From positions 1-60,896 of IMG/VR virus record IMGVR_UViG_3300034106_006066: a stretch of 60,896 bases of DNA; one strand, given 5' to 3'. The stretch's first letter is position 1, and the number at the start of each line of letters is the position of its first letter. Positions 5,583 to 60,602 of the stretch are shown in pieces. The notes below the pieces were generated by a model. The model did not search any database and was not told the origin of the DNA. It saw nothing but the letters and a program-made list of their open reading frames with translations. This DNA comes from a virus. The translations under genes and the position numbers were made by a program.

Positions 5583-5609
5583 TTTCACAGGTAAACAAGG
5601 AGATAGATA

Positions 5610-6470
5610 ATGAGTGTTCCTTTTATGTGGGTTGATGGAAATCTGACACTGGTTCTTAATAATAGAACCTATCAGGTTCTTCCAGATCATATTAACTACA
5701 AGATGATTCTTGAGGCATTGCCTAGTGCGACTGCTGATGAACTTCTTGAAATTGTAGATGTCGAAAAGGCTGTTAGCACTTTTAGTGATGGTCTTGTAGA
5801 GATTAAGAATGGTAAGGTTATGTACGAGGGCGAGGAGGTTCATGGAAGTATCAGTAAGAGGATTCTTGAGTTTATGAGCAAGGGTCTACCTTTCCAGCCT
5901 CTTGTTAATTTCCTTAATAATCTGATGGAAAATCCTAGTATGCAGAGTCAAAAGGAATTGTATGATTTCCTTGAGCATGAGCATCTGCCTATTACTGAGG
6001 ATGGTCATTTTCTAGCCTATAAGGCTGTTAGGAATGATTTTAAGGATAAGTATCGTGGAACTTTTGACAATAGTGTTGGTCAAATTGTTAAAATGCAGCG
6101 AGCCAAGGTTGACGATGATAGAGCCAGAGGATGTTCTGATGGTCTTCATGCTGGTGCATTGAATTATGTTGCTGGTTATGGTAGTCTTGAGAATGGTGAT
6201 AAGATTGTGATCGTTAAGATTAATCCTAGTGATGTTGTTAGTGTTCCAAGTGATTGTAATTGTGAGAAACTTCGCACTTGCCGATATGAAGTAGTCGGAG
6301 AGTATCAAGGCGAACTTCTCAAGCCTCTTTATTCAGCCTCTTTTACTGAGGATGAGTATAGTGAAGATGATGAAGATGATTATAATACCCTTGACGAAAG
6401 TTATTGGGATCAGTTTGACGAGGAAGATGAAGAAGAGGATTTTGAGGAGGATTATGACGATCAGTATTGA
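5610..6470 (+). CDS. rIIB: rIIB-like protein
   Basis: 286 aa, with AAGGAG upstream of ATG 5610. It matches phage rIIB proteins: an LNFLNNLMENPS segment, then LPITEDGHFLAYKAVR and a KYRGTFDNSVGQ motif, followed by a conserved alpha/beta core and a long Asp/Glu-rich tail (residues ~230-286). It lies directly downstream of rIIA, and the pair act together in T4-type lysis inhibition and exclusion. The acidic tail is longer than I would expect for T4 rIIB. Confidence 0.85.
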   Translation: MSVPFMWVDGNLTLVLNNRTYQVLPDHINYKMILEALPSATADELLEIVDVEKAVSTFSDGLVEIKNGKVMYEGEEVHGSISKRILEFMSKGLPFQPLVNFLNNLMENPSMQSQKELYDFLEHEHLPITEDGHFLAYKAVRNDFKDKYRGTFDNSVGQIVKMQRAKVDDDRARGCSDGLHAGALNYVAGYGSLENGDKIVIVKINPSDVVSVPSDCNCEKLRTCRYEVVGEYQGELLKPLYSASFTEDEYSEDDEDDYNTLDESYWDQFDEEDEEEDFEEDYDDQY

Positions 6471-6475
6471 TCGTT

Positions 6476-6537
6476 AAAGTGAAAGTCTGGTGACTCAATA
6501 GAATACTATTGTGATGGTTCGATTCCATCACCACTTT
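6476..6537 (+). ncRNA. Compact tRNA-like element
   Basis: Four consecutive perfect stems fold as a mini-cloverleaf: acceptor-like AAAGTG (6476-6481) with CACTTT (6532-6537); D-like AGTC-TGGT-GACT (6484-6495); anticodon-like CAATAG-AATA-CTATTG (6496-6511); and T-arm TGATGG-TTCGATT-CCATCA (6512-6530), whose loop is the canonical TTCGATT. The D and anticodon loops are only 4 nt and there is no variable region, so it cannot decode as a normal tRNA. It lies 6 nt after the rIIB stop, where it could serve as an RNase P/Z or CCA-enzyme target that protects or trims the rII mRNA, or be a relic tRNA. Confidence 0.55.
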
Positions 6538-6606
6538 TATATTGATAATGATAGCAGAGGTTGCTGTCCCAATATTTAGGAATAATTGAAAGAAACAGGA
6601 CATATT

Positions 6607-7821
6607 ATGTTTAGCGATAATTTAGGATTCAATCCGTTTGATCATAAACTTTCCCCTCACGGCAAAATGTATGTTAGGCCAAGAGAAAAGTTTTTAGACT
6701 CTTTTGGTATCAAACACATCTTTTGCTATAATGGAGATCCTAGAAAAAAGATTAGTAGTATGAATCATACTAATCGACTAGTTGAGGCTACAGAAGCAAA
6801 TGTGAAGAAAAATTCTGATGTTTATTTTTATGTTAATGGTGGGCGAAAACTATATGCCATTAACAACTTTACCTGTTGCTTCTGTGATATGGATGCTGGG
6901 CGAGACAATGAGGGCAAGTATTTTAAGCCTAGCGTTGTAATGCAAAAGAAGAAGGGTTTTCTAAAAACTATCAACGAGTTTCCAGTAGCACCTAGTTGGG
7001 TTGTAGATACTCGTAATGGTTATCAGTGCTATTGGCTTTTTGATGAACAATCAGTAAAAATGATTGGTAAAAATAAAACGTTCTGGAACGGTCTACAGAA
7101 GAAACTTGTCAACTATTTTGGTGGTGATCCAAGAGCGATTAAAGCCAATCAGATTTATCGAGTTCCTTATACTTGGTGGAGGAAAGGTTGGGAAGGTAAG
7201 CAACCTTATTTTACTAGTATTCTTAGTGGCTCAACTGGTAATCCAATTAATGTTGCTGATCTAAAGAGTGCCTTAACGGGTCAACCAGCAAACATTAGTA
7301 TTGTTCCAGAGAAATGCAGCGACGAATGGTATAAGGGCTATGCGACTGCGTATAAGCAATCTGATGAAACTGGCATCCCAGTATCGACCGAGGTTGCTAA
7401 ACAGATTCTAAATGATCTTCAAAACAAAAAGAGTTATGGAGTCATAGATCAAGCCAAGTATTTACTCAATAATATTATGGGTTGTGGTCAGAAGAATAGT
7501 CAACAAAATATTAAATATGATCTAGTTGATGATTCCGAAGAAGAGGATATTCTTTGTTCCGAACTTGCTCAGAATGAGGTAGACGACGAGACTGATTCAA
7601 TCGACACTACCTTGCCCCACGAAGGATCGTGTCACAAGCGTCAGGAAGCGTCAGGCGATGATGTTTTAAGTCTAGACGGTGAGCAGACTAGACTTTTAAA
7701 AACCGTCGTGGAGTTCCTTAATCAAGTAAGCACCCCACTCTATTTTAGTAACAACAGATTCCTATCTTCGTCCGCTAAAGAGTTGGCGAATAAACTTAGC
7801 GATCATTTTTGTATTGGTTAA
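6607..7821 (+). CDS. Archaeo-eukaryotic-type primase (AEP/RepB-like)
   Basis: 404 aa. AGGA at 6597-6600 selects ATG 6607 over the upstream in-frame TTG. Features of an AEP primase-polymerase core: a CFCDMDAG motif with the metal-binding D94-x-D96, SWVVDTRNGYQCYWLF (130-145) as the central strand motif, and FGGDPRAIKANQIYRVPYT (171-189), the DP...RVPyT pattern typical of RepB-like and PrimPol families. The C-terminal ~190 residues are less ordered, with an acidic stretch around residues 295-330. It probably makes primers for phage replication. No helicase domain is fused. Confidence 0.75.
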   Translation: MFSDNLGFNPFDHKLSPHGKMYVRPREKFLDSFGIKHIFCYNGDPRKKISSMNHTNRLVEATEANVKKNSDVYFYVNGGRKLYAINNFTCCFCDMDAGRDNEGKYFKPSVVMQKKKGFLKTINEFPVAPSWVVDTRNGYQCYWLFDEQSVKMIGKNKTFWNGLQKKLVNYFGGDPRAIKANQIYRVPYTWWRKGWEGKQPYFTSILSGSTGNPINVADLKSALTGQPANISIVPEKCSDEWYKGYATAYKQSDETGIPVSTEVAKQILNDLQNKKSYGVIDQAKYLLNNIMGCGQKNSQQNIKYDLVDDSEEEDILCSELAQNEVDDETDSIDTTLPHEGSCHKRQEASGDDVLSLDGEQTRLLKTVVEFLNQVSTPLYFSNNRFLSSSAKELANKLSDHFCIG

Positions 7822-7823
7822 AA

Positions 7824-8243
7824 ATGCACGAATCATACGATGATAACGAAGAGGATTATGATGACTATAACTATGATGATGTGCCAAAAGATCCATACAA
7901 ATGGTATTATAAATTCGACGTTGGGCCAGACAATCCTGTTTCTAAATGGCTTGATGATCTAATTAATGATTTTATTAAGAATCCTCCTAGTGACTATAAC
8001 ATAGTTAGTATTCCCGGTTTTTATGAGAAGAAGTTTCCTGTGAATAGTTGGAATCCCAATACTGATAAGGGTAATTCCTTACAGTATTTGGGGTCCAATT
8101 ATCAAAACTCTCCTATCTGGAAAAAGAAATATTTTGTAGTTGACAAAATTAATAATGAGTATAAGCTACACTTACAGGATCATGTTATGCACTTTGTTAT
8201 GCAGCCTTACTACTACAAAGGGTTGTTTGATATACTTAACTAA
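7824..8243 (+). CDS. Hypothetical protein, acidic N-terminus
   Basis: 139 aa, starting at ATG 7824, two bases after the primase stop. The first ~25 residues are dominated by Asp, Glu and Tyr; the rest is an aromatic-rich alpha/beta region (KWYYKFDVGPDNPVSKWL, later VVDKINNEYKLHLQDHVM). No recognised family. It is probably co-transcribed and coupled with the primase. Confidence 0.6.
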   Translation: MHESYDDNEEDYDDYNYDDVPKDPYKWYYKFDVGPDNPVSKWLDDLINDFIKNPPSDYNIVSIPGFYEKKFPVNSWNPNTDKGNSLQYLGSNYQNSPIWKKKYFVVDKINNEYKLHLQDHVMHFVMQPYYYKGLFDILN

Positions 8244-13406: not shown

Positions 13407-14408
13407 ATGGCAAAAGGGTTAGATGTAGGTACAAGTTTTATAGTACTATCTCAAGAAAAAAATGAACAAATAGAATATAAAGATTTCAGAGATGCTTTTT
13501 ATATAATTAAACCAACAACTCCAGTAGCTACTAAAATGATAGAAAAAGGTTTGGCTGGAAAGGTTTTCATTAAAGATACTGATGGTTCATTTATTTTATT
13601 AGGTAGGGATGCGATAGAAAAAGCAGTAGAAAGAAATGATAATGCTAAAAGACCTATGAGCAAAGGAGTGGTTTCGGCAAAGGAAAAAGACGCTAAAAGA
13701 GTATTAGCTTTTATATTAAAAGAAGTAGTCGGCCAACCTGATGAGCCCCTTGAAAAGTTAGTCTTTTGTGTTCCTGCACAACCTATTGATCAAGAAGATG
13801 ATGATTTTGATGTAGGATATCATGAAGATACTATTAAAGCTATTTTAAATGAGGTAGGTTATGATGCTAAAGCTATTAATGAAGCTGAAGCACTATGTTA
13901 TGCCGAATTGGAAAGCGAAGACTACACAGGAATTTCTGTATCAGCAGGAAGTGGTATGCATAATATTTGCGTTATGTTAAATGGTGAACCAACTATTTTA
14001 TTTAGCACCACGAAAAGTGGAGATTGGATAGATAAAATGAGTTCTGTAGCAACAGGAGAACCAGAAACTGTTGTGCAAGCAGAAAAAGAGAGTGGACAAT
14101 TTGAGATTGGAAAAGAAAACACGAATCCGGTATTGTCTGCTGTAAGTTCTTATTATGAACGATTAATAGATTATACTACCAAACAACTTAGCTTAGCATT
14201 AAGAAACCATAATAGTCTGCCAAAATTCAAGACCCCGTTAACTATTGTTATTTCTGGTGGAACTTCTTTGGCAAAAGGATATATAGAAGCATTTGAAAAG
14301 AAACTGCAAGAAAATAATTTTCCTTTACCAATAAAAGTAGTCAAACACGCTAAAGACCCTTTACATTCTGTATCTAAAGGGTGTTTAATAGCATCTAAGA
14401 TTTTATAG
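13407..14408 (+). CDS. Actin-like ATPase (ParM/MreB superfamily)
   Basis: 333 aa. The superfamily motifs appear in order: phosphate 1 GLDVGTSFIVLS (4-15), connect 1 INEAEALCYAELE (~157-169), phosphate 2 GISVSAGSGMHN (~173-184), adenosine motif IVISGGTSLAKGY (~283-295). The size fits a plasmid/phage ParM or ASKHA protein. In large phages, actin-like and tubulin-like filaments position DNA or partition genomes, but a chaperone-like role cannot be excluded. Preceded by a small membrane protein and followed by an adhesin and protease. Confidence 0.82.
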   Translation: MAKGLDVGTSFIVLSQEKNEQIEYKDFRDAFYIIKPTTPVATKMIEKGLAGKVFIKDTDGSFILLGRDAIEKAVERNDNAKRPMSKGVVSAKEKDAKRVLAFILKEVVGQPDEPLEKLVFCVPAQPIDQEDDDFDVGYHEDTIKAILNEVGYDAKAINEAEALCYAELESEDYTGISVSAGSGMHNICVMLNGEPTILFSTTKSGDWIDKMSSVATGEPETVVQAEKESGQFEIGKENTNPVLSAVSSYYERLIDYTTKQLSLALRNHNSLPKFKTPLTIVISGGTSLAKGYIEAFEKKLQENNFPLPIKVVKHAKDPLHSVSKGCLIASKIL

Positions 14409-14415
14409 GAAATAT

Positions 14416-16431
14416 ATGGCTATATTTGATCCAGTACTAACGTGTCCTAATTCTGGAACAACACAACAAATAGGAGTATATAATCCTAATGCTTTTTTAG
14501 TCATAGTTTATATACAGCAAAATATAACAAAAACCCAAGGAGAAGAATATTGGCAAGATTTAATGAATTCTGGATTACAAGGATTAATACAAGCACCATT
14601 TCTTATATCAACAAATCCTAATTATTGGTATAGAGTTAGGCTTGTTGCTGGTAATGGAACTGGTGAGATTAGTGATTGGATTTACTGTCCAGTATCTGCT
14701 GGGGTTCCTGATAGTCCGACGCCAACTCCTACTAAAACACTAACTCCTACTCCTACTAAAACACCTTCTATAAATCAAACAGATATAATTAAACCAGATA
14801 TATCAGTATGTGATGTAAATTCTAGTATTAATGCTAAAAATAATAATTCTTTTTTAGTAAAATTATATATGGATTACCGATATATTGGATTACCAAGTAA
14901 TGACATGAATGTTAATGGTTGCTTATCAGGATATAATTTAAATAATCAGCAATGGAGAATTATTAGTTCTCCTTTAGGATATACTGATCAATCTAATCCA
15001 CAATCTATCGTATATCCTAATGCATATACTGAAAATATACTATTATCTATAATTCGTGGATTGTTTCATTGTGGCGGAACCAATATGTTGGACTATCAAT
15101 ATAGAATTCGATTTGGTAATTTAGCAAATACAGCTTTTAGCGATTATTCATATTGTCCTGTAAATTTAGAACCAACACCAACACCAAGTAAATCTGTTAA
15201 TATTCCTACAGCAACGCCAACTTTAACCACAACTGGCTCTAGTAATCTGCTACAAATTACTCCAACCCCTTCATCTAGTATACTACAAATTACTCCAACT
15301 CCTAGCAAAATAGAATCTAATAGAAATACAAAATTTATTCAACATAGAAACTGTATTTGTCCTAGCGCTACTCCAACAGCAACTCCAACAAAAACTCCAA
15401 CAGCTAGTCCAACAAAAACTCCAGCTAGCACAACAACACCACAACCATCATCTAGTCCACCACCAGGCCCACCAAGTCCTCCTAGTCCACCACCCGGTCC
15501 TCCTGGCCCACCAAGTCCTCCAAGTCCTCCTGGCCCACCAAGTCCTCCAAGTCCTCCTAGCCCACCAAGTCCTCCCAGCCCGCCTCCTCCCGGACCTCCT
15601 GGCCCACCAAGTCCACCAAGTCCTCCCAGTCCTCCAAGTCCTCCTAGCCCACCAAGTCCTCCTAGTCCTCCTAGTCCACCACCAGGCCCACCAGGCCCAC
15701 CAAGTCCTCCTAGTCCTCCTAGTCCACCACCAGGCCCACCAGGCCCACCAGGCGGCGGTGGTGGCGGTGGCGGTGGCGGTGGTGGCGGAGATAATTGTCC
15801 AGAATGTACTTATACTGGATCTCGATTAGGGCTTCTAAATGGTTATACTGGAGTTCAATGTAATGATGGAGAATTATGTAGCGATTGTAGTGGAGGAATA
15901 CTAATATGTGATGGAATAGCATACTGTTGTTGTGCTGGTCCAGGAGTTATGAGTGCTGATACTAATGGAGCACCATTTTGTTGCGAGCCAGATCCAGACT
16001 CTACAGCATGGCACAAACGTAAACCTGTACCTTGCGAAAAAAAGCCATGTAATCCTCCTGATCCTAATAGAGATCCTAATGCTGTTCCTGAAGACCCTAA
16101 GAGAGAAGGGTATTATGATGGATCACTCTATGAATGCGAAAACAATCCTAATATGTATACTATTACTAATGAATTAGAATCAACAGCTGAACTAAGTGTT
16201 ATTGGTCTTGCCGCAGATGAGGTTATAATTAATGGAGAAATATATGAAGAAGGACAACATATATTTTCATGGCCTTTTGATCCTTGTGGAATCGGATTAC
16301 CTATGAATGGAAATCATTCTTACTCATTTAGTACGATCCTTCTTCCAGGAGAATCTGTTACCTTTGGAGGAAGAGATAATGGTTTTGGCGGTGGTATAAC
16401 TGTTAATTGGACTTTATGTGAATTAGGTTAA
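14416..16431 (+). CDS. Pro-rich modular adhesin/tail-fibre-like protein
   Basis: 671 aa, no signal peptide. Two similar N-terminal modules (~1-100 and ~125-255) have fibronectin-III-like spacing, each ending with a YCPV motif. A TPTPTKT linker separates them. Residues ~346-445 are a PPSPPSPP/PPGPP block, then ~12 glycines in a row (446-458), then a Cys-rich domain (DNCPECTYTG, CDGIAYCCC) and a C-terminal beta-type domain. The PPGPP units resemble collagen-like phage fibres but lack a regular G-x-y register. The linker style matches the giant proteins at 41-61 kb, so it is probably a virion surface protein. Confidence 0.75.
   Translation: MAIFDPVLTCPNSGTTQQIGVYNPNAFLVIVYIQQNITKTQGEEYWQDLMNSGLQGLIQAPFLISTNPNYWYRVRLVAGNGTGEISDWIYCPVSAGVPDSPTPTPTKTLTPTPTKTPSINQTDIIKPDISVCDVNSSINAKNNNSFLVKLYMDYRYIGLPSNDMNVNGCLSGYNLNNQQWRIISSPLGYTDQSNPQSIVYPNAYTENILLSIIRGLFHCGGTNMLDYQYRIRFGNLANTAFSDYSYCPVNLEPTPTPSKSVNIPTATPTLTTTGSSNLLQITPTPSSSILQITPTPSKIESNRNTKFIQHRNCICPSATPTATPTKTPTASPTKTPASTTTPQPSSSPPPGPPSPPSPPPGPPGPPSPPSPPGPPSPPSPPSPPSPPSPPPPGPPGPPSPPSPPSPPSPPSPPSPPSPPSPPPGPPGPPSPPSPPSPPPGPPGPPGGGGGGGGGGGGGDNCPECTYTGSRLGLLNGYTGVQCNDGELCSDCSGGILICDGIAYCCCAGPGVMSADTNGAPFCCEPDPDSTAWHKRKPVPCEKKPCNPPDPNRDPNAVPEDPKREGYYDGSLYECENNPNMYTITNELESTAELSVIGLAADEVIINGEIYEEGQHIFSWPFDPCGIGLPMNGNHSYSFSTILLPGESVTFGGRDNGFGGGITVNWTLCELG
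15451..15790 (+). repeat. Proline/serine and glycine repeat tract
   Basis: CC(A/T)AGTCCTCC-type units encode PPSPPSPP and PPGPP for about 300 bp, followed by GGCGGTGGTGGC-type units (15751-15790) encoding about a dozen Gly. It is far richer in G+C than its surroundings and is the kind of tract that expands or contracts by slippage. Confidence 0.9.
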
Positions 16432-41084: not shown

Positions 41085-44000
41085 ATGCCAGACTGCGATA
41101 TTTTATTAAAAATGAATATGGATGGTATTGATGGTTCTTCTTCTTTTATAGATGAATCTTCATATAATAGATCTTTATCTATTATAGGATCATCTCCGAT
41201 AATAAAAACAAATAATAAAAAATTTGGATCAGGAAGTGCATATTTTCCTAACTCCAACCTCTCATCTGCTATAAGAATAAATGATTTAGGAATTATAGCT
41301 AATATTAATGAAGATTTTACTATAGAATTCTGGGTCTATTTTGACTATCCGTATAGTGGTGCGATTCTAGGAAATTGGGCATTTAGTACGGGGTCGAATC
41401 AAGATTGGATGATTAATCTATCGGATGCTTCTGGTTATAATTATATTGATATAGTTTTGGGAACTCAGGCACTTATGACAAATAATACTATAATCAATAT
41501 AAATCAATGGTATCATATTGCATTTGTTCGTAAAAATAATATTTCTAAATTATACGTTAATGGATCATCTGAATTAAATAATAATTCTTTAAATAATCAA
41601 TCATATATTTTAGGTAAAATTAATACTCCTACAGATATAGGATTTGTTAATCCTAATTATTTTAAAGGATATATAGATGAAATAAAAATTATTAAAGGAT
41701 TAGCTTTATATGAATCAGATTTTCAAGTTCCCACAGAAAGAGTACCAGATTGTCAAGCATTAACAATAACTAATACTCCTACTCCAACCAGCACATTAAC
41801 TCCAACGGTAACCACAACTAGTACAGCTACTCCCGCTAGCACAACTACTCCAACTAGCACAGCTACTCCAACTAACAGTGTTACTCCAACAGCAACCTCG
41901 TCAGACATAATCTATGGTTTTCTTTATGGCTGGGGCAGGAATCAATATGGTCAACTTGGAAATGGAACAATTACTAATAAATCTTCTCCAGTTCAGATAG
42001 GAAATGATATTTGGAAACAAGTACATGCTGGAAAAAACTATACAATAGGTATACGATATGATGATACTTTATGGAGCTGGGGTAATAATACAGGCGGTCA
42101 ACTTGGGGATGGAACCACAACCAACAGACTTTTTCCAGTTCAAATAGGAAATGATACTTGGAAAAGCGTATCATCATACAATGATCAGATATTAGCTATT
42201 AAAAACGATAATACTCTTTGGCGATGGGGCCGTTGGACAGATACTAATGCCGTGCCTACTGGATCAACTACTCCAGTTCAAATAGGTAATAATTTTTGGA
42301 AAAAAGTATATGGTAATATGATTATTAAAAACGATGATACTCTTTGGATTTTGAATCTAAAAGATAGTAGTCCTACTCAAAGCAATGACACAGGAGGAAT
42401 GGTATATACGTGGCCTTCTAATGATACTTGGAAAAGCATAGCTTTTGGAAGTTCATATTTAGGAATTAAAAACGATAATACTCTTTGGGCTTGGGGACCT
42501 AATTGGAATGGTCAACTTGGAGATGGATCAACTATTGGTAGGTCTTCACCAGTTCAAATAGGAAATGATACTTGGAAAAGTGTAACTATTGGTTTAGGAT
42601 CATACCCAACAAGTTACGGTATCAAAAGTGATAATACTTTATGGGCTTGGGGTGTTGGTTATTCGTTGGTTCCAGAACAGATAAATAATGATAGTTGGAA
42701 AAGTGTGCATGTAGGATTTGACTATACACTTTTTATTAAAAACGATAATACTCTTTGGGGTTTGGGAAATAATAATCATAATCAATTTGGAGACGGAACA
42801 AATACAAATAGACTATCTATATCTCAAATAGGATCAGATGCTACTTGGCAAACAGTGTCTATAGGATATGAAGAATTTAGTTTTGGAGGTTCAGTATCAG
42901 ATCTAAACTATAATTTAGCTATTAAAACTTCTGCAATAACTCCAACCCCAACTAATACAGTAACTCCAACCAATACAACAACTCCAACTAATACGGTCAC
43001 TACAACTAGTAGTATTACTCCTACGGCCACTCCAACTAATACGACTACTCCAACCAGCACATTAACTCCAACGGTCACCACAACTAGTACGGCTACTCCA
43101 GCTAGCACAACTACTCCAACAAGAACGGCCACTCCAGCTAGTACAACTACTCCAACTAACAGCATTACTTTGACCAGAACACCAAATATAACACCCACCA
43201 ATAGTCAAACTCCAACAAGAACAGCCACCTCAACAGTTACTCCAACCAACACAGTCACTCCAATCACTAGTAAAAATTGCTTATCTTCTATTTTTCCTCA
43301 AAGTTTAGAATTTATAGCTACAAATAATGATATAATTTTTCATTCTCATATATCTGATTGTTATACTAAATGTTTTATAGAATTAGTTTTTAATAATTTA
43401 AATAATAGTCAAATTTTAACTGAAAACTTTATAGTGCCAGATGTTTCTTCTTGTTTAGGTGATTGTTCTGATGATCAAGGATATAAAACTCAAAAAGATT
43501 TTTATACAACATATAGGACTACTAATTTAGTATCTGGACATAAGTATTTATTAACTGCATCTATTAATTGTATGGAATCGATTATTCAAGAGAAAATTTT
43601 AGATTTTAATGATAGAGATATATATGATTGCTGTGAGTTACCAACTCCAGAACCTTCTACTACTAGTACAGCTACACCTACTATTAGTCCAACAAAAAGC
43701 GTTACTCCAACGCCCACAAAAACACCAGTCAATAGCGTTACTCCAACTAGCACCAGCACAACAACGCCCACAAAAACACCAGTCAATAGCGTTACTCCAA
43801 CTAGCACCAGCACAACAACGCCCACAAAAACACCAGTCAATAGCGTTACTCCAACCAGCACAACTACTCCAACAAGAACGGCTACTCCAACAGCTACTCC
43901 TATGCAAACATCCGCATGTTTATTAAATAATGGAGATTTTGAACAAGGGGCTCCTGGAAATGAGGGTGGAGGAGGAACAATTACTTCTTGGACTCAAAAT

Positions 44001-46421
44001 AGTGTAGATATTCATTCGTTGTCTTATGATAACTCCTTATCTCCTTTACAACCTCTAAATAGATGGATTGATCTAAATACTTGCGCACCTGGATATATTC
44101 AACAATCAATTAATACTATTATAGGACAATCTTATTCTATTAGTTTTAAATTAGCAGCCAATAATAAAGACGCAAGAAATATTATTAAAACTTGTAGACT
44201 ATCTATTATAGGATCATCTACTATAACACAAGATTATACTTTCGACCCATCTGCTACAACATACGAATCGTATGAAAGTATGGGATGGATTGATCAAAAT
44301 TATATATTTACGGCTGATAGTTCCACAACAACTATAAAATTTGAAAGTACGTGTCCCGATTGTGGATGTTTTGGACCAGCAATAGATAATGTTTGTTTGA
44401 TTCAGACAAGTGCTAATTATAATAATTGTGCAAATTGGAATGGATCTACCAACGGTAATGTTACCACAGTAGGAAGTAATGGTGCTCCTAGTTATTATGG
44501 GACTTATGATCAAAGCGGAAATGTTTATGAGTGGAATGATCTAGATGGTACTCCTGGCTCGCTTCGTGGGCTTCGGGGCGGCTACTGGGGCAGCGACGCG
44601 CTCCCCTTGTCGTCCTCCTACAGTCTCAGCTTGTGGTACGCCCCGTCGAACTATATCAACGGCGTCGGTTTTCGTCTCGCATGTTCCCTTAACTCTTTAA
44701 ATCTTTCTAACTTTGTAAATATAGGAAATATTAACAATAGTAACGATAGTACTGGTTATGGGAGTGTAAGCTACAATTATCAAATAAATCAATACTTGGT
44801 CACCAACTGTGAGTATGTTGAGTTTTTAAATGCGGTTGCTAAGACGGACACTTATAATCTTCATAATACGATTGATAATGACTATGCTGGCATAACACAA
44901 ACCGGAACCATCGGCAATTTTGTCTACTTTGTCAAGACAAATATGGATAACAAACCCGTAGTTTTTGTAAGCTGGTTTAACGCGGCAAGATATTGCAACT
45001 GGTTACATAATGGTAAACCCTCTGGACCTCAAAATAATAGCACAACCGAAACTGGAGCATACTCTCTTAACGGAGTAACTAGCGGTAACGCTGTAGCAAA
45101 AAACAGCGGAGCTAAATATTATATCCCCACCGAAAACGAATGGTATAAAGCGGCTTTTTATAGTCCCAATAAAAATGGATCACCAGGATATTATCAGTAT
45201 GCTACTCAAAGCGATACTGCTCCAACGTGTGTAACAGCAAGCAGTACTGGAGATGGGCCAGTAAGTTCTAATTACTACGCTTGTCCATTACCGTCGCTTA
45301 GTCCAACACCAACCAGCACAACAACGCCCACAAAAACACCAGCCAATAGTGTTACTCCAACCAGCACAACAACGCCCACAAAAACACCAGCCAATAGTGT
45401 TACTCCAACCAGCACAACAACGCCCACAAAAACACCAGCCAATAGTGTTACCCCAACTAGCACAACTACTCCAACAACAACGGCTACTCCAACAGCTACT
45501 ACAGTTAGTTTAAATAGTGCTAATTTTAATGAGTGCGCCGATTGGAATAGTCAAAATGGTAATGTTACTACAGTAGGAAGTAATGGTGGGCCGAGTTATT
45601 ATGGGACTTATGATCAAAGCGGAAATGTTTATGAGTGGAATGATCTAGCTGGTACTCCTGGCTCGTCTCGTGGGTTTCGGGGCGGCTTCTGCCTCAGCCT
45701 AAACGCGAGTTCCTTGTCATCCTCCACCGGGTTCTCTAACGCCACGTCGTACGCTGGTAATATCGGAGAATTAATCGGTTTGCGTCTATCATCATCATCT
45801 TCTACTCCTAATTCTTCTAATGACTTTGTTACTGTAGCAAATACTGGTAATAGTAATGACTCTACCGGTTATGGAAATATAAACTATACTTATCAAATAG
45901 CTAAATATCCTGTAACTAACTGTGAGTATGCTAAGTTCTTAACTGCGGTAGCAAGTACCGACACATATAATCTTTATAGAGATAGCGAAGCAATAGGAAT
46001 GGATAGTGATGCTAGAAGTGGCATAAATCGAAGCGGCTCCAGCGGTAATTTCACCTACACTGTTAAAACTAACATGGGTAACAAGCCTGTAATTTATATG
46101 ACTTGGTTTAATGCTGCAAGATACTGCAACTGGTTACACAATAATAAGCCTACCGGACCTCAAAACTCCAGCACAACCGAAGACGGAGCATACTCTCTTA
46201 GCGGAAGAATTAGCGGTAACTCTGTAGCAAAAAATAGCGGAGCTAAATATTATATCCCCACCGAGAATGAATGGTATAAAGCAGCTTATTATAGTCCCAA
46301 TAAAAATGGATCACCAGGATATTATACATATGCTACACAAAGTGATAACCCTCCAGTATGTGTAACAGCAGATAGTTTTGGAAACGGGCCAAGAATCTCG
46401 GATTATATCTGTCCAACTTAA
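41085..46421 (+). CDS. 1778-aa modular adhesin: LamG, RCC1 repeats, DUF642-like and two FGE modules
   Basis: AAGGA is ~6-10 nt upstream of ATG 41085. Modules: LamG-like sandwich (~1-230); TPT linker; about seven RCC1-like repeats (~276-615, e.g. GWGRNQYGQLGNGT, SVQIGNDTWKSV-type); TPT linker; a Cys-containing domain (~731-852); TPT linker; DUF642-like carbohydrate domain (~943-1107, NGDFEQG, GYIQQSI); then two FGE/C-type-lectin modules (~1109-1404 and ~1478-1778) separated by linker. In both FGE modules the C-terminal half (SANYNN..W to GFRLA/GLRLS) precedes the N-terminal half ([20 protein letters not shown]). No Cys pair typical of catalytic FGE is obvious, so they are probably binding modules. 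Within each, a GC-rich patch looks like a hypervariable region. Confidence 0.82.
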   Translation: MPDCDILLKMNMDGIDGSSSFIDESSYNRSLSIIGSSPIIKTNNKKFGSGSAYFPNSNLSSAIRINDLGIIANINEDFTIEFWVYFDYPYSGAILGNWAFSTGSNQDWMINLSDASGYNYIDIVLGTQALMTNNTIININQWYHIAFVRKNNISKLYVNGSSELNNNSLNNQSYILGKINTPTDIGFVNPNYFKGYIDEIKIIKGLALYESDFQVPTERVPDCQALTITNTPTPTSTLTPTVTTTSTATPASTTTPTSTATPTNSVTPTATSSDIIYGFLYGWGRNQYGQLGNGTITNKSSPVQIGNDIWKQVHAGKNYTIGIRYDDTLWSWGNNTGGQLGDGTTTNRLFPVQIGNDTWKSVSSYNDQILAIKNDNTLWRWGRWTDTNAVPTGSTTPVQIGNNFWKKVYGNMIIKNDDTLWILNLKDSSPTQSNDTGGMVYTWPSNDTWKSIAFGSSYLGIKNDNTLWAWGPNWNGQLGDGSTIGRSSPVQIGNDTWKSVTIGLGSYPTSYGIKSDNTLWAWGVGYSLVPEQINNDSWKSVHVGFDYTLFIKNDNTLWGLGNNNHNQFGDGTNTNRLSISQIGSDATWQTVSIGYEEFSFGGSVSDLNYNLAIKTSAITPTPTNTVTPTNTTTPTNTVTTTSSITPTATPTNTTTPTSTLTPTVTTTSTATPASTTTPTRTATPASTTTPTNSITLTRTPNITPTNSQTPTRTATSTVTPTNTVTPITSKNCLSSIFPQSLEFIATNNDIIFHSHISDCYTKCFIELVFNNLNNSQILTENFIVPDVSSCLGDCSDDQGYKTQKDFYTTYRTTNLVSGHKYLLTASINCMESIIQEKILDFNDRDIYDCCELPTPEPSTTSTATPTISPTKSVTPTPTKTPVNSVTPTSTSTTTPTKTPVNSVTPTSTSTTTPTKTPVNSVTPTSTTTPTRTATPTATPMQTSACLLNNGDFEQGAPGNEGGGGTITSWTQNSVDIHSLSYDNSLSPLQPLNRWIDLNTCAPGYIQQSINTIIGQSYSISFKLAANNKDARNIIKTCRLSIIGSSTITQDYTFDPSATTYESYESMGWIDQNYIFTADSSTTTIKFESTCPDCGCFGPAIDNVCLIQTSANYNNCANWNGSTNGNVTTVGSNGAPSYYGTYDQSGNVYEWNDLDGTPGSLRGLRGGYWGSDALPLSSSYSLSLWYAPSNYINGVGFRLACSLNSLNLSNFVNIGNINNSNDSTGYGSVSYNYQINQYLVTNCEYVEFLNAVAKTDTYNLHNTIDNDYAGITQTGTIGNFVYFVKTNMDNKPVVFVSWFNAARYCNWLHNGKPSGPQNNSTTETGAYSLNGVTSGNAVAKNSGAKYYIPTENEWYKAAFYSPNKNGSPGYYQYATQSDTAPTCVTASSTGDGPVSSNYYACPLPSLSPTPTSTTTPTKTPANSVTPTSTTTPTKTPANSVTPTSTTTPTKTPANSVTPTSTTTPTTTATPTATTVSLNSANFNECADWNSQNGNVTTVGSNGGPSYYGTYDQSGNVYEWNDLAGTPGSSRGFRGGFCLSLNASSLSSSTGFSNATSYAGNIGELIGLRLSSSSSTPNSSNDFVTVANTGNSNDSTGYGNINYTYQIAKYPVTNCEYAKFLTAVASTDTYNLYRDSEAIGMDSDARSGINRSGSSGNFTYTVKTNMGNKPVIYMTWFNAARYCNWLHNNKPTGPQNSSTTEDGAYSLSGRISGNSVAKNSGAKYYIPTENEWYKAAYYSPNKNGSPGYYTYATQSDNPPVCVTADSFGNGPRISDYICPT
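43700..43870 (+). repeat. 54-bp tandem repeat in TPT linker
   Basis: Three near-identical 54-bp units begin at 43711, 43765 and 43819, each encoding 18 residues with a TPTKTPVNSVTPTSTSTT-type repeat. Exact DNA identity suggests recent expansion. Confidence 0.9.
44546..44690 (+). other. Candidate DGR-type variable region 1
   Basis: Encodes the LRGLRGGYW...GFRLA end of the first FGE module. By hand count 44551-44680 is about 64% G+C, far above the flanking A/T-rich sequence. Compared with the second module it keeps the frame words (GGTACTCCTGGCTCG, GGGGCGGC, TTGTC.TCCTCC, ATCGGTTT-like ending) while codons between them differ. No reverse transcriptase is encoded in this window. Confidence 0.5.
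45312..45470 (+). repeat. 48-bp tandem repeat in TPT linker
   Basis: Units begin at 45325, 45373 and 45421, each encoding 16 residues (TPTKTPANSVTPTSTT type). A close relative of the 54-bp array at 43.7 kb in the same gene. Confidence 0.9.
45656..45795 (+). other. Candidate DGR-type variable region 2
   Basis: Encodes SRGFRGGFC...GLRLSSS of the second FGE module, about 56% G+C by hand count over 45661-45780. Shares its frame words with the variable region at 44.55 kb but has different residues at most positions between them. Confidence 0.5.
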
Positions 46422-51413: not shown

Positions 51414-54400
51414 ATGAGTAATAGTGCCAATTATAAAAACTCAGCAATATGGAATAATGTTGTAGGAAATATTACAACAAACGGAACTAATGGAATTTCT
51501 AGTTTCTATAATACTAGAGATCAAAGCGGAAACGTTTGGGAATGGATAGAAAATTCAAACAGTAATGATAATTTATTAAAGAACAGAAGAGGAGGGGCGT
51601 GGAACAGCTCATCCGAAAAGTCTATTTCTGTATCAGGACTAGCTACAGGATCATTAGCAACAAAAAGTCATAATACTGGTTTTAGAATTGGCCAATCTTT
51701 CCAAGAGAATAATTATAGTTTTGCTCACTTTGTTGATATTATTAATCCTAATAATCCACCAGATACTGGAAATAATACAAACTTAGGATCAGTGTCATAT
51801 TCTTTTAAAATTATGCAGAATACTGTTACTAATTCTCAGTACGCATATTTTCTTAATGTTGTTGACCCTAGCGGCCTAAATAGTCATAATTTATATTCTA
51901 CTTTAATGACTAAAGATAATGATTTAAATAATCCTCGTGGAGGCATAAATTATTCTAGTTCTAGAAATATAGGATCAAAATATACAGTAAAACCTTATTT
52001 TGAGAATAAACCAGTTAATTATGTTAGCTGGACCAACGCCGCCATGCTATGCAATTGGCTCCATAATGGAGCATCATCCAATAGTAGTGTAGCAACAGGG
52101 GTTTATGACCTAAGTAACCCGAGTACTACTTCAAGATCAATAGATGCTAAATATTTTATTCCTAATGATAATGAATGGTACAAAGCAGCTTTTTATTCAG
52201 ATTCTATTTCTGGTTACTATTTATATGCGACTCAAAGCAATCAGGCGCCTTGCTCCATAGGATCAAATAGTTGTGGTAGTATTAATTCTATTAATGGAGA
52301 TGGTTCAGTAATTACTAATGCTCCAACTCCATCTATTACTCCATCTGTTACTTTTAGTCCAACTCCAACACTATCTATTAGTCCTACTAAAAGCTTAACT
52401 CCAACAATTACTTCAACCAAAACATTAACACCAACTAAAACACCTACTAATACTCCAACTATATCAATTAGTCCTACTGTTACTATCAGTCCATTTACAA
52501 CTTCTACTCCAACAGTTTCTGTTACTAATAGCAATACTCCGACTTTAACAGTAACACGGACTATAACGCCGACCAATACTGCTACTACAACAAGAACACC
52601 ATCTCGCACACCAACAAAAACACCTACACCAACAAAAACAAATACCCCCACAATAACACCTACAACTTCTATTAGTCCGTCAATTACTCCTAGTATCAGC
52701 TTAAGTGCAAGTATAGAGCCTCCTAGTAGACCAGATATTCTAGATAGAAGACACAATATCAAACAGTATATTGGCAAAAATCCTTTAAATCTTATATCGG
52801 CACCAACACCACGACTAATCAATGATACATTAGTTAAAGATTGGTATAATTTTATTTCAAATATAGAACTAATTTATCAAAAAGATATTAATAATAATGG
52901 ATTATATGATAATAGTAGTTTATATTTTAATACCATAGCTAGTGGTGACTCCATAGTCCCAGATTCATCATCAACACTACAACAATTAGAAACGAATCAG
53001 ACATATTATTTTATACTAAAATCATCAGCAAACATTCCTGTCAAAATTCCTTTTGATAATCATAATTATAATTCTATACTAGCTTCCTCTGGTATTATTG
53101 ATTCTATCAGGAAATTAGACCTATCACCAGATTCTTTTATTGGTAAAATCAATTCTAATAATGAATTAAATCACTTAACTATTATAGATGCTTTGTATAA
53201 AGATATAGATAATCTTAAAAAAGATAAAAAATATCCAGATAAAATACAACAAGCAGAAAATATATTAGATGTTGTATATACTGATTATATTAATAACAAT
53301 CCTTGCTCATCATTAGTAGAATATGAAGAGAATTGTGATTCTCATTATAATTTTAATCCATCTATTAATTTACCTTCTGGATTATCAAATAATTTAACTA
53401 ATATTAATATTGAAAATATAGACACTTATATTGCTAGAATTAATATTCCAATTAACAATTTACCAGAATTAACAAACAATGAAGAAATTTTGTATGAATT
53501 TAATTTTATAGATACTGATGGTAAAACATACCAAATATACCCATATAGCGGATCTATTCTACCCAATAATAATTTATCAAATATTTCTGCGATAGTAAAT
53601 ATGTTCCCTTCGTCTACTCCAACAGTTACTCCAACTATAACTCCAACAAATACTGTTACTCCTACAAGCACTGTTACTCCAACCAATAGTATTACTCCTA
53701 CCAATAGCATTACTCCTACTTTAACTCCAACAACAACAATTACCCCAACAAGAACAACCACTCCAACAAATACCATTACTCCGACTAATACTATTACGCC
53801 GACTAATACTATTACTCCGACTGTTACTCCAACCAACACCATTACTCCAACCAATACTATCACTCCAACTATCACTCCAACTACTACTATAACTCCTAGT
53901 ACTACCAGACCATCTTATAATAGTGCAAACTATAATGAATCAGCCAACTGGAATGGGTCTTCTGGAGGTAATGTAACGACCGTAGGTAGCAATGGAGGAT
54001 CATCTTATTATGGAACTTATGATCAAAGCGGAAATGTTAAAGAATGGAACGATCTAAATAATAGTATTACTGTAAATAAAGGTTTAAGGGGCGGAGGGTG
54101 GAACGATACTTTAGCAACACTATCGTCTTCTTCCGATTCATTATCTTTTATTCCAGAATATGCTGATGATAGTATAGGATTTCGTATTTGTGCGATGAAT
54201 AATACTTTTGATTATAATTTTGTAAGTGTTGCGGATACTAATAATATTAATAGCTCTAATTCATATGGAAATGTAAATTATATTTATCAAATTGGAAAAT
54301 ATCCAGTTACTAATTGTGAATATGCTCAATTTTTAAACTCAGTTGCATCAGTAGATAAGTATAATTTATATAATGATAATATGGATAGCGCTAGATGCGG

Positions 54401-57400
54401 CATAGTTAAAATACCAGGCTATAGTACTACAAATAATTCAATGCTAAATATTGATTTTGTTCCTGTTCTTAATTCAGGAAATGCCCCCAATCCATTGATT
54501 AGCCCAGATCTGTCTACTGTTAGTAGTAGCGGTTCTGTTAATTATAATTTTCATATAGGAAAGTATGAAATAACTAATGCTCAATACTCTTCGTTCCTTA
54601 ATAGTGTTGCTAAAACAGATACTAATAATTTATATAGAATACTTATGGAGAATGAAATAGTTCGTTCTGGTTCTAATGGAAATTATAGCTATAGCACAAC
54701 AGAAGGAAATGAAAATAAACCAGTTTGTTTTGTTTCGCAATTTGATATTTTTAGATTTGCTAATTGGCTACATAATGGTGGTCCGTCAGGTCTTCAAAAT
54801 GCTTCAACAACAGAAGATGGGGCATATGATATGTCATTGTCTAGACCATTGCGCAAATCTGGAGCAAAATTTTGGATTCCTAGTATAGATGAATGGTATA
54901 AATCTGCTTTCTATAGTCAAGAACTAAATAATGGGTCCGGAGGTTATTATCTGTATCCAACAAGCAGTAATACTTTATCTCCAAGTAATCCTCCCGGAGG
55001 ATCTGATTCAGCTAATTTTAATACTGTTGTTGGAGAAAAAACAGTTGTTGGAAGCTATATTAATGCAACTTCTCCATGTGGTGCATATGATATGGCAGGA
55101 AATATTTCAGAAAGATTGGATACTTTTGTTAGTTTTAATGATCTATACTTACATGCGGTAGGAAATTGGAATTATTCAGGTGAATTTACAAATATTCCTG
55201 GAGAATTATTTAATTCATCATCATCAGAACACACCTTTGCTACTGCTGGACTTACATCAGAAAACGAGAGAGTAGGATTTAGAGTAGCTGGATTTTTCCC
55301 AACCAACTCGTATTCTGTAAAACCCGATTGGAATAATAAGCCAATAGTTTTTGTTAATTGGTTTGATGCTGCCAGATATTGTAATTGGCTACATAACAAC
55401 AAAATCAGAGGACCACAAGATATTACTACAACCGAAGACGGAGCTTACACTCTGAATGGTATTGTTAGTGGTAATGGAGTAATAAAAAATACAAATGCTA
55501 AATATTGGATTCCTAGTGAGAATGAGTGGTATAAAGCAGCATATTATAGTCCTAATAAAAATAATACTGGTAATGTTGGATATTACCTTTATGCTACTCA
55601 AAGTGATGAACCGTTGTACTTTGTTACTGCTGATAGTGCAGGAAATGGCATATTAAACGAACAACTCGCTCAAGCTAGCGATTATTTCTGTGGAGAATTA
55701 CCAACTCCTACTCCAACAAAAACAACCACTCCAACTATTAGTACTACCCCCACAAATACAATTACGCCAACCAATAGCGAGACTCCAACAGCTACTCCAA
55801 CAAATACCTCTACCCCAACAAATACTCCTACTCCAACTAGTACTCTAACTCCATTTTTAAGCCCATCGATTACTCCAACAAGTACTCCAACTAGTAGTGA
55901 GACGCCTACTGCCACACCTACAAATAGTATTACTCCTACTAATACTCTTACTCCAACTAATACCATAACCCCAACACAAACTATTACTCCTACTTCTACC
56001 GATATAGCTATTGGAAATAGAGCTAATTATAACGGATTAGCTAATTGGAACGGATCTACCGGAGGAAATCTTACTTCAGTAGGAAGTAATGGAGGACCAA
56101 GTTATTATGGAACATATGATCAAAGCGGATTAGTTTATGAATGGAATGATTTAAACAATATTGATTCCCCCAATAGAGGGAAAAGAGGGGGCTGGTCTGG
56201 AAATAGCGCATTAGCATTATCTTCTGCTTTCAGAGCTGAGGATCCGATAGCCTCAATAAGATCATCTGTAGGATTTCGTTTGTCTTCTAGTACTAATCCA
56301 TTAAATCTTGATATGTCATTAATTACAGATCCTGGTAATACTTTTGATACTGGTGGAACTAATTATGGTTCTGTAAACTACACATACTATATAGGAAAAT
56401 ATATTATTACTAATTGTGAATATGTAGATTTTCTAAATAGTGTTGATCCTCAAGGAATTAATCCGCAAAATATATATAATACTTCTATGACAACAAGTAT
56501 TCATGGAGGTATTAATTTTAATAGTGGAGCAAATAATGGTAATAAATATACTATAAAAACTAATTGGGGAGATAAACCAGTAGTTTTTGTAAACTGGTTT
56601 AGCTGCTCAAGATACTGCAACTGGTTGCACAACGGTAGGTTTAAATATCTCACCTCAGATAGTTCTGCTAATGCTCCTCAAAATAATGGTGCATATAATA
56701 TAGGGATATCAACAACAGGCAATGCTGTATCAAAAACTAATACAGCATTATATTATATACCTACAGAAAATGAATGGTATAAAGCTGCATATTATAAAGG
56801 AAATGGAACCAACGCTGGATATTGGAGATATGCCACTCGATCCAACGATATTCCATTAGCAATAACTGCTGATAGTTTTGGTGCTGGAACATTAAATGGA
56901 ACTTCAGTAATAACTAATTATAGTTGTCCTCCTTCTCCAAGTTCTATGCCAACACCCACTCCTACTACTACTTCCACTCCAACAAATACTGTTACTCCAA
57001 CCTTAACTATTACCCCAACCAGAACAGCCTCTCCAACAGTTACTCCAACCAGAACAGCCTCTCCAACAGTTACTCCAACCAGAACAGCCTCTCCAACAGT
57101 TACTCCAACCAGAACAGCTACTCCAACAGTTACTCCAACAAGAACATCCACTCCAACAATTACTCCAACCAGAACGGCTACACAAACAACTACTCCAACA
57201 AACACCTCTACTCCAACAAACACCTCTACTCCAACAAGAAGTATAACTCCTACGCGAACACTAACGCCAACTAATACGGTTACTCCGACCCAAACCAAAC
57301 TAATACTACCCTTGACTGCCGGTTCTAATACAGCTAATTTTATTGGATTATGGGGAAACACAACATTAAGTAGTACTTTCAATAGTAATGACAACTACAG

Positions 57401-60400
57401 CAACATTAGAGCTGTAGCAGCAGGATATGGTCGTACCACTCCTGGTCCGATGTTTTCTACAGCTAGAGGCAGTATCAATATTAGATTTATTGATCAGAAT
57501 AATCAGCCTGTTTCTGTTACCGAATTCTCATTAAGCAATATCATACTATATTATGAATTTAGACCAGTATCTTTAAGTGGAGCGACTTTAACTGGTAGTG
57601 GTTCTAGCTATATATTAACTTTACCATCGAATACTAATTCTTTAAATGGAGCCTATCAATTAAAAATTACAGGATTTGACCCAGAAGGTTTATATTCAAT
57701 GATTTGTTGGCAAAAATGGATTCTTGGATCTGAAAACTTAAGATATATTTGGTATAGTACTAATTGGAATGAATCATTAACTAATAATGTTACAACTGTG
57801 GGTAGTAATGGTGGTCCTAGTGCATATGGTACTTATGACCAAAGCGGGAATGTAGAGGAATGGACAGATAACTTTGGTCTTGCTGAAGTTAGTAAAAAAT
57901 TACGAGGAGGATCATATAGATCAGTTATTCATGAAATTAGTAAAATTTATAGATCCGTAGATACAATTCCATCATATAAAGATCCCAGATATGGCTTTAG
58001 AATATGTAGTTTTAATAATTCTAATTCAATACCAAATTTAGTACAAGTAGTTAATTCTAATAATACTCAAGATACAACAGGATTTGGATCTGTTCCTTAT
58101 GCTTATTTTATAAGTAAATATCCTATTACTAATTGTGAATATGTAGAATTTTTGAATAGTATTGATCCTCAAGGTTTGAATCCTCAAGGGATTAGTCCAG
58201 ATGCTGCTGCTAGAAGAGACATAATATCGGGTATACTATTTGATAGTACCTCCTCCAACGGAAATAAGTATTCTACCAAACCTAATATGAGTAATAAGCC
58301 AGTAGTATATATAAATTGGTTTAATGCTGCGAGATATTGCAATTGGTTACATAATAATAGACCAAAACTATTAACAACAAACCTATCAGCAACGGCTCCA
58401 CAAAATGTTGGTGCTTATAATTTAGGATCAACAACAACAGGTAGTACTGTAGCCAAAGAGCCCAATGCTAAGTATCATATTCCAACAGAAAATGAATGGT
58501 ATAAAGCAGCATTTTATAAGAGCAATTCTACCAATGCTGGATATTGGAATTATGCTACTCAACAAGATACTATCCAGTATGTTAGTAGTGATCAATTTGG
58601 AAATGGTATTAATTTTAATCTAAACAATCATCCCGTTGCTAGAAGTAGTGATTTCAATTGTATTCAATATGTTACTCCTACTCCTACTATTACTCCCACC
58701 AAAACCTCAACTCCTACTGCTACTCCAACAAGTACTATGGGTCCAAGAACACCAACTCCAACATCGTCAATTCCATGTGACTTTACATTACAAAAATGGT
58801 TACCACTGATCGACTCACAATTAGATATAGCACCTGCATGGACGTGTCTCGCCTCTAATGAAGATGCAACAAAATTAGCTGCTATTTCCTACAACAATTT
58901 CAATGTTGGGGGCTTTGGTATAGAATACAAGGTTTATGTTAGTAATAATAGTGGAAAAACCTGGACATTAAGTTTTGCGTCTAATGACCCTTTAAATAGT
59001 ATAGCAAGCGATAGCACAGGAAATAAACTAATACTAACAGCAGACAATGGTTCAGGTATCGGAACATTACATACCAGTACTGATGGTGGTCAAACTTGGA
59101 TACCAAGAACTTCTGCTGGCATTAAACCCTGGCAAAAAGTAATTAGTAGTAATAATGGAAATAATTTAGTTGCAATAGAGTTGACTACTTCTATATATAC
59201 TAGTAGCGATAGCGGAATAAGTTGGACAAAAATTGATAACGATCTATTATCAATGTCGGGGTGGTATGATATTGCTATGAATAGCGACGGATCTCAATTA
59301 ATAGGTATATTACCTACTACTACTAGTGGATTGATAGCAAATCTATATGTTAGTAGTGATTATGGAAATAATTGGACAATTATTAATAGTGCTGGGACTA
59401 GATCATGGAGAAGAGTATTACAAAATAATACTGGTTCAATAATAGTAGCTTTAGCAACACGAACTGCTAATGCTAGTCCAGACGAGATACACGATATGTT
59501 TGTGAGTACGAACGGTGGCGTTTCTTGGACTCAAAGAGGATCTGCTGCTTCCAAAGCATGGTGGGATATCTCTATGAACAAAAATGGTAATATTATATTA
59601 GGAATTAATCATGCTAGTACTTCAAGTAATAGCACGCCTGGAGATTTAAGCTCTATTTACCTTAGTAGAGATACTGGTATTTCTTGGAGCGAATTAGCTT
59701 ATAATAATGGTTCGGTTGGGAATGGGATGACTAAAGTTTGGAGTAAAATATCAACCGACTACTCAGGAAATAAATTCATAGCTTCCGCATCTAATAATAG
59801 TGTCTATACAATGGATTGTAGCATTCCTTCAAAAGGAATTCTGTTTGACAGCTCTTCCTGGATAAACAGGTCGGATGTTCCATCTTTATATCAATCTTTA
59901 TTAAATACTGCTTCTAACAGATGGTCTAATTATATCAAATTAAGTGACATTACTTTAAATCAACATCCAGGACTCATTAGTTCACAAGGATTACAACTAA
60001 AATCATTCTCCTTATATAACGATGGATCAGACTGGTCAGCTGCTAGATGTGAACCAAATAATGATTATACTGGATTTAATTTGTCTATTAATACATATTA
60101 TAATCCAGGGCTTACCAACTTATGGAGTAATATTATTGTACATGCATTGGGTCATGGTCTAGGTATCGGAACCAATTGGACTGTTACAGGAGGTTTCGTT
60201 GGAGGCGTATCTGATACTTCTCTTAGACTAGATGGAATATCATATCCTATGACTTTGGCCGCTTGGAGACTTATTTCCGCAAACCGACTCATGCCATATA
60301 CGCCGGTACTTGAAGAAAATCAAATTGGAGCAGGAACACACTGGACAGATACAGTTATAAATGAGATTATGAGAAGACCTATAACGGAATCCAGAAATAT

Positions 60401-60602
60401 AACAATATTAAGTATTAAAAACCTATTAGACATAAAGCCTCTCGGATTTGAGAGATATGTGGAAATCAAACCAGGAAATTTTGAAAAATGGATTTCACGA
60501 GAACAAGATTCCTTTTTTACTCCACAGATACAACAAAATATAGAAGAAAATATTCTTTATTGCGGAACATGTAATCATATTAATTCACTTAAAACTAACT
60601 AA
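51414..60602 (+). CDS. 3062-aa giant adhesin: permuted FGE modules, Asp-box propeller, inactive metalloprotease
   Basis: Modules in order: FGE1 (~1-305), TPT linker, a beta domain (~440-730) related to the start of the 1317-aa protein, linker, FGE2 (~835-1430) with another FGE nested inside (~1005-1297), linker, FGE3 (~1538-1840), linker, a beta domain (~1965-2108), FGE4 (~2110-2418), linker, Asp-box propeller (~2450-2800; [37 protein letters not shown]), and a leishmanolysin-like domain (~2805-3062). In the last, [10 protein letters not shown] (2910-2914) has Ala in place of the catalytic Glu. All four main FGE modules have the C-terminal half before the N-terminal half; the nested one has normal order. 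The gene starts directly with the C-terminal half. Probably a tail-fibre or surface-display protein. Confidence 0.85.
57015..57180 (+). repeat. 30-bp tandem repeat in TPT linker
   Basis: Units such as CCAACCAGAACAGCCTCTCC with ACAGTTACT recur every 30 bp about five times, encoding [10 protein letters not shown]-type residues. Several copies are identical at DNA level. Confidence 0.9.

What the first reader, a model, noticed from the sequence alone, without database searches (positions are those of the whole stretch)
44546..45795. Two GC-rich hypervariable-looking segments: candidate targets of a diversity-generating retroelement
At the RGG.W...GFR segment, the usual variable region of DGR-diversified FGE/C-lectin proteins, both modules of the 1778-aa protein switch to 56-64% G+C in a strongly AT-rich gene. 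They share frame words (GGTACTCCTGGCTCG, GGGGCGGC, TTGTC.TCCTCC, TCGGTTT) but differ in between, often at codon positions 1 and 2 (CTT/TCT, GGC/CTC, TAC/TTC). The equivalent segments in the 3062-aa protein are AT-rich. No reverse transcriptase or template repeat is in this window.
Basis: partly seen in the sequence, partly recalled or inferred. Interest (0 to 1): 0.85.

Follow-up and report, generated by a model that had tools for sequence, protein, structure and literature searches.

The report
Phage targets of host hypermutation system
Two short G+C-rich stretches in a phage surface-protein gene are hypervariable cassettes whose template and reverse transcriptase sit not in any of the phages examined but in planctomycete bacteria, suggesting that these phages let a bacterial mutation machine diversify their own genes.

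Summary
Window 44556-44681 (VR1) and 45660-45788 (VR2) are 63% and 57% G+C (GC3 0.80 and 0.65) in a 32% G+C phage fragment, inside FGE/C-lectin modules. They are diversity-generating-retroelement (DGR) variable regions. A Planctomycetota MAG carries a complete cassette (Avd, RT, template repeat, FGE target) whose template and target differ at 13 sites, all template adenines. Window VR1 shares that template's codon frame and departs from it at 16/30 adenines but only 10/93 other bases. At least ten distinct AT-rich phages carry such tracts. None of them has an RT or template in its record (RT profile: 0 of 36 phage records, 8 of 8 controls). The best reading is that the phage regions were written by a host-lineage DGR acting in trans. 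Capture of host variable regions by ordinary recombination is the main rival and clearly happened upstream of the tract in one phage. Active trans homing is inferred, not shown. The window is a fragment, so a phage-borne RT cannot be fully excluded. The circularly permuted FGE module is a second oddity.

The parts
44556..44681 (+). VR1: variable region, GGCTCG...CTCGCA, with NNC/NNT variable codons in a fixed G+C-rich frame
   Evidence: GC/GC3 step; 16/30 template-A against 10/93 non-A mismatches to the G110 template; frame mismatches 7/88 to host consensus
45660..45788 (+). VR2: second variable region, another length allele and partly decayed
   Evidence: GC/GC3 step; 20/32 against 22/94; frame mismatches 18/88
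41085..46421 (+). 1778-aa target gene: laminin-G-like, RCC1, DUF642 and FGE-sulfatase modules joined by Pro/Thr linkers
   Evidence: Pfam
44415..45281 (+). FGE module 1 in circularly permuted order: C-terminal half (with VR1) then N-terminal half
   Evidence: halves match opposite ends of solved FGE/TvpA chains; AF2 model pLDDT 89, pTM 0.91
45516..46421 (+). FGE module 2, same permuted order, with VR2
51414..60602 (+). 3062-aa protein with further permuted FGE modules, whose VR-equivalent segments are AT-rich

Best explanation
VR1 and VR2 are variable regions of a DGR. The template repeat, reverse transcriptase and Avd that wrote them belong to a DGR lineage of Planctomycetota, the presumed hosts. 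During infection, mutagenised cDNA from the bacterial template would replace the matching stretch of the phage gene, so the phage has a surface-exposed, ligand-binding-type FGE/C-lectin module diversified in trans without carrying the machinery. Shown: the shared frame, adenine-centred variation, a complete bacterial cassette with that frame, and absence of RT and template from the phage records. Inferred: that the phage infects these bacteria, that homing acts directly on phage DNA, and that the module is a receptor-binding or adhesion part. The partly decayed copies (VR2, G009, G470) suggest occasional rewriting followed by ordinary drift.
For: A complete DGR in G110:C58 (L158): Avd (NF033474, E 9e-29; PF22296), RT 364 aa with GLPIGNLTSQ and YMDD motifs, template at 5183-5312(-), FGE PEP-CTERM target; the 13 template/VR mismatches in the block all face adenine. 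All 10 phage VRs tested have excess mismatch at template A, p 4e-3 to 2e-6 each; column diversity among phage VRs is 0.67 at A against 0.21 elsewhere (p 1e-14) and correlates 0.85 with host VRs. Columns defined as variable from host VRs alone carry 210/343 mismatches in phage VRs; frame columns 110/967. The G+C-rich tract has nearly the same ends as the template-VR homology block in most phages. RT profile: 0 of 36 phage records, 8 of 8 controls; PF00078: 0 of 50. Three viral scans find no template of this type. Strong VR-bearing records total about 1.13 Mb. Gene exchange with the host family is direct in L002: 67 of 69 bp identical to L105 (counted from sequences).
Against: No host genome holding the exact template of VR1 was found. 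In the host family 37 of 72 genomes have VR-type matches, but only G110 (intact) and G078 (RT remnant with a stop) have the cognate template, so an RT-bearing host cannot simply be assumed. All phage records are fragments or of unknown completeness. No reads or population data show ongoing change in VR1. L002 shows that ordinary recombination also moves such sequence.
Confidence: 0.55

Rival explanations
1. Capture by recombination: the phages took already diversified VRs from host FGE target genes by homologous recombination, and the tracts are passive, slowly decaying imports not rewritten in the phage.
For: L002 carries host-like sequence upstream of the template block, 67/69 bp identical to L105. 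The phages swap this gene among themselves: L004 and L067 flanks are 98.6% and 96.9% identical, the gene 77%. Several VRs are partly decayed. Most host genomes with VRs also lack the RT.
Against: In the window, L004, L007, L006 and L050 the tract starts at or near the template block rather than further upstream, and the host target gene continues into an unrelated PEP-CTERM tail. No phage VR examined was seen to equal a host VR at the variable sites, though host sampling is thin.
Confidence: 0.3
2. The phage carries its own DGR RT and template in the unsequenced remainder of its genome.
For: The record is a 60.9-kb linear fragment, probably of a much larger T4-like phage (rIIA, volactin). Many other phages do carry DGR RTs.
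Against: No RT in any of ten distinct VR-bearing phages, including records of 230, 178, 154 and 152 kb. No template of this frame in any scanned viral contig. The G+C-rich frame fits the bacterial lineage, not a 32% G+C phage.
Confidence: 0.11
3. Not a DGR: G+C-rich, functionally variable segments produced by selection and codon bias, or by chimeric assembly with host reads.
For: The loops are exposed in this fold and vary in other families (own knowledge); a metagenome contig could in principle be chimeric.
Against: Exact synonymous sharing with a bacterial template (P about 2e-20 under phage usage), adenine specificity, many independent phages, a 3.2-kb region with its VR 100% identical in three contigs named after three different samples (L008, L009, L067), and graded decay.
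Confidence: 0.04

Closest known systems
Bordetella phage BPP-1 DGR (mtd)
   Same: Phage gene with a C-lectin-fold ligand-binding module, VR of NNC-type codons, adenine-specific variation; the C-terminal half of the model aligns weakly to Mtd (Z 3.0).
   Different: BPP-1 carries RT, Avd and template next to its target; here none is found in the phage and the template lineage is bacterial.
Treponema denticola TvpA (PDB 2y3c) DGR target
   Same: FGE/C-lectin-type VR protein; sequence profile E 1.6e-6, fold Z 5.6.
   Different: TvpA is a bacterial protein in normal domain order (own knowledge that it is a cellular DGR target); the phage modules are circularly permuted and joined by Pro/Thr linkers.
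Trans-acting DGRs in Thiohalocapsa PB-PSB1 (PMC10907252) and phages with a second distal VR (PMC12629997)
   Same: Targets served by an RT/template at a distance.
   Different: There template and target are in the same genome; here they would be in two different organisms, host and virus. No report of this was found in the held library.
Planctomycetota DGR cassette in G110:C58 (L158)
   Same: Same template frame and same FGE target type.
   Different: Its own target is a normally ordered FGE protein with a PEP-CTERM tail on a bacterial contig.

Membership tests
Diversity-generating retroelement (complete cassette) | DGR-type reverse transcriptase in the same genome | tested here: not met
   None in the window, 0 of 50 related records by PF00078, 0 of 36 by RT profile with 8/8 controls found. 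The window is a fragment, so this applies to the record.
Diversity-generating retroelement (complete cassette) | Template repeat in the same genome | tested here: not met
   A template query finds only the two VRs in the window and only VR-type matches in related records; no such template in viral contigs.
DGR variable region (target) | Homology to a template repeat next to a DGR RT | tested here: met
   G110:C58 template 5183-5312(-) beside RT and Avd.
DGR variable region (target) | Mismatches concentrated on template adenines | tested here: met
   VR1 16/30 against 10/93, p 4e-6; VR2 20/32 against 22/94. The share of mismatches facing A is 62% in VR1, below the 75% typical of a true TR/VR pair (PMC8144416), as expected if the exact template is another allele.
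DGR variable region (target) | VR lies in a C-lectin/FGE-type ligand-binding fold | tested here: met
   Pfam FGE-sulfatase, profile matches to FGE and TvpA, model.
DGR variable region (target) | Ongoing adenine-specific mutagenic homing | not testable with these tools
   No reads or population data for this phage.

The most novel reading that the evidence does not exclude
A group of large AT-rich tailed phages keeps variable regions that match the template of their planctomycete hosts' DGRs and has them hypermutated by the host's reverse transcriptase during infection, so a virus diversifies its surface proteins with a borrowed cellular mutator.
Probability: 0.5. Interest if true: 0.88.

Novelty: new variant of a known kind. 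Interest (0 to 1): 0.76.

Why it matters
DGRs are treated as cassettes that serve the genome that carries them. A template in the bacterium and targets in its phages would mean that phages can outsource targeted hypermutation of surface proteins, that surveys keyed on an RT miss such phages, and that VR frames can be used to assign hosts to uncultured phages. It makes a plain question testable: can a resident DGR rewrite the DNA of an infecting phage?

Tried and rejected
A tight DNA pattern from the window found nothing in viral contigs; a looser one found three true VR-bearing phages plus chance hits. The RT in G054 is group-II-like with no template beside it. The Chthoniobacterales genome G053 has a true DGR, but its template has another frame. 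The other order-level RTs in Planctomycetota have other template frames. A 'phage template' scan found templates of other classes and coding look-alikes only. The closest RTs in viral contigs sit on short GC-rich contigs with other template frames. Foldseek gave no significant PDB or viral match for the permuted module; the second-look aligner gave FGE-type matches at Z 4-7, below the level it calls firm. Phage GenBank records gave no DNA match.

Full report
CHECK. The gene at 41085-46421 encodes a 1778-aa protein with laminin-G-like, RCC1, DUF642 and FGE-sulfatase modules. Two 126-129-nt tracts in its FGE modules are strongly G+C-rich: VR1 44556-44681 and VR2 45660-45788, GC3 0.80 and 0.65 against a mean of 0.19 and a maximum of 0.50 in 2371 other 40-codon windows. 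The equivalent segments in the 3062-aa protein are AT-rich. The variable codons of VR1 are nearly all NNC or NNT within a fixed frame: CGT GGG CTT CGG GGC GGC NNC TGG ... GCG ... TTG TCG TCC TCC ... CCG TCG ... GGT TTT CGT CTC GCA.

WHERE THE FRAME COMES FROM. The same frame occurs in FGE modules of other AT-rich viral contigs: L001, L002, L004, L006, L007, L050 and others, later also G470/L323. A scan of 84,980 prokaryote genomes with a frame pattern returned mostly Planctomycetota MAGs among the true matches, in FGE genes several of which end in PEP-CTERM-like tails. In the family of one of these genomes, 37 of 72 genomes have such matches.

THE CASSETTE. G110:C58 (L158) holds a complete DGR on one strand: FGE PEP-CTERM target 6969-8009, Avd 6407-6808, RT 5313-6407, template repeat 5183-5312. 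Template and VR are homologous from CCGGCTCG to CTCGCAAG and differ at 13 sites, all adenines in the template. G078 has a closely similar template next to an RT remnant with a stop.

ADENINE TEST. Against that template VR1 differs at 16/30 adenines and 10/93 other positions (p 4e-6), VR2 at 20/32 and 22/94 (p 1.5e-4). Eight other phage VRs behave alike. Among ten phage VRs, column diversity is 0.67 at adenine columns and 0.21 elsewhere (p 1e-14) and correlates 0.85 with that of 20 host VRs. When variable and frame columns are defined from host VRs alone, 28 of 33 variable columns are template adenines, and phage VRs depart at 210/343 variable and 110/967 frame sites. These p-values treat columns as independent, which is only approximate. 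Part of the residual frame mismatch is allele difference: host VRs also show length variants and an NNT codon after GGCTCG, as VR1 does.

NO MACHINERY IN THE PHAGES. PF00078 finds no RT in the window or in 50 related records. A profile of the Planctomycetota RTs finds none in 36 phage records, the window included, and rings in 8 of 8 control viral records; G470 also lacks one. A template query finds VR-type matches in 18 of 50 records; those printed are coding VRs, and none reaches the identity of a true template. Three pattern scans of viral contigs found no template of this frame. The strong VR-bearing phages total about 1.13 Mb, with records up to 230 kb. They are fragments or of unknown completeness, so this is strong but not final.

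HOW IT GOT THERE. In the window, L004, L006, L007 and L050 the host-like tract begins at or near the template block and ends at its other edge, as replacement by template cDNA would give. In L002 host-like sequence extends upstream of the block, 67 of 69 bp identical to a host gene (L105; sequences), so ordinary recombination with the host also occurs. VR2, G009 and G470 are partly decayed, which suggests episodic writing. In E. coli a reconstituted DGR was shown to edit matching targets on chromosome and plasmid, in a replication-direction-dependent way (PMC12875486), so a replicating phage genome is a plausible target; this step is inference.

THE MODULE. The FGE modules are circularly permuted: the C-terminal half with the VR comes first, and the Pro/Thr linker sits between the N-terminal half and the next C-terminal half. 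The profile matches residues 194-292 of TvpA with its first part and residues 38-138 of sulfatase modifying factor 1 with its second. AF2 on 38 relatives gives pLDDT 89 and pTM 0.91 for the permuted module; its N-terminal-half part aligns to CarF and TvpA (Z 6.7, 5.6) and its first 97 residues weakly to Mtd (Z 3.0). Foldseek itself found no significant match.

KNOWN AND NEW. DGR targets at a distance within one genome are described (PMC10907252, PMC12629997). No report of a bacterial DGR serving phage targets was found in the held library, which lacks many subscription papers and all bioRxiv. I therefore rate it a new variant of a known kind, with the trans step unproven.

Noticed in passing
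window 712-907 (+): Group I intron (RF00028, 66 bits, gathering 50) that appears to interrupt a tRNA gene (5' part about 686-712, 3' part about 908-964); the whole-window gathering scan and ARAGORN reported neither.
   Followed up: partly
window 44415-46421 and 51414-60602: FGE/SUMF1 modules in circularly permuted order, with Pro/Thr linkers inserted between the N-terminal half and the next C-terminal half; the C-half then N-half order recurs in most of the 77 related loci.
   Followed up: partly
L002 10102-10174 against L105: 67 of 69 bp identity between a phage FGE module and a Planctomycetota gene upstream of the template block: direct sign of phage-host gene exchange.
   Followed up: yes
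host family of G055 (72 genomes): 37 genomes have VR-type sequences but only G110 and G078 have the cognate template/RT; the cassette may be mobile, unbinned or often lost. An IS91-type transposase lies on the G110 contig.
   Followed up: partly
L129 (G053, Chthoniobacterales MAG): Complete DGR with RT, adjacent template and an FGE PEP-CTERM target of another template frame.
   Followed up: partly
window 15460-15790: Pro/Ser/Gly repeat (PPSPPGPP then poly-Gly), the strongest G+C peak of the window, in a 671-aa protein.
   Followed up: no
window 2910-5582 and 13407-14408: rIIA lysis-inhibitor homologue and a Volactin: the window is probably a piece of a large T4-like phage.
   Followed up: no
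L004 against L067/L009/L008: Phages with 97-99% identical flanks but a 77% identical FGE target gene: the gene looks swapped as a unit; L008, L009 and L067 are 100% identical there, VR included.
   Followed up: partly
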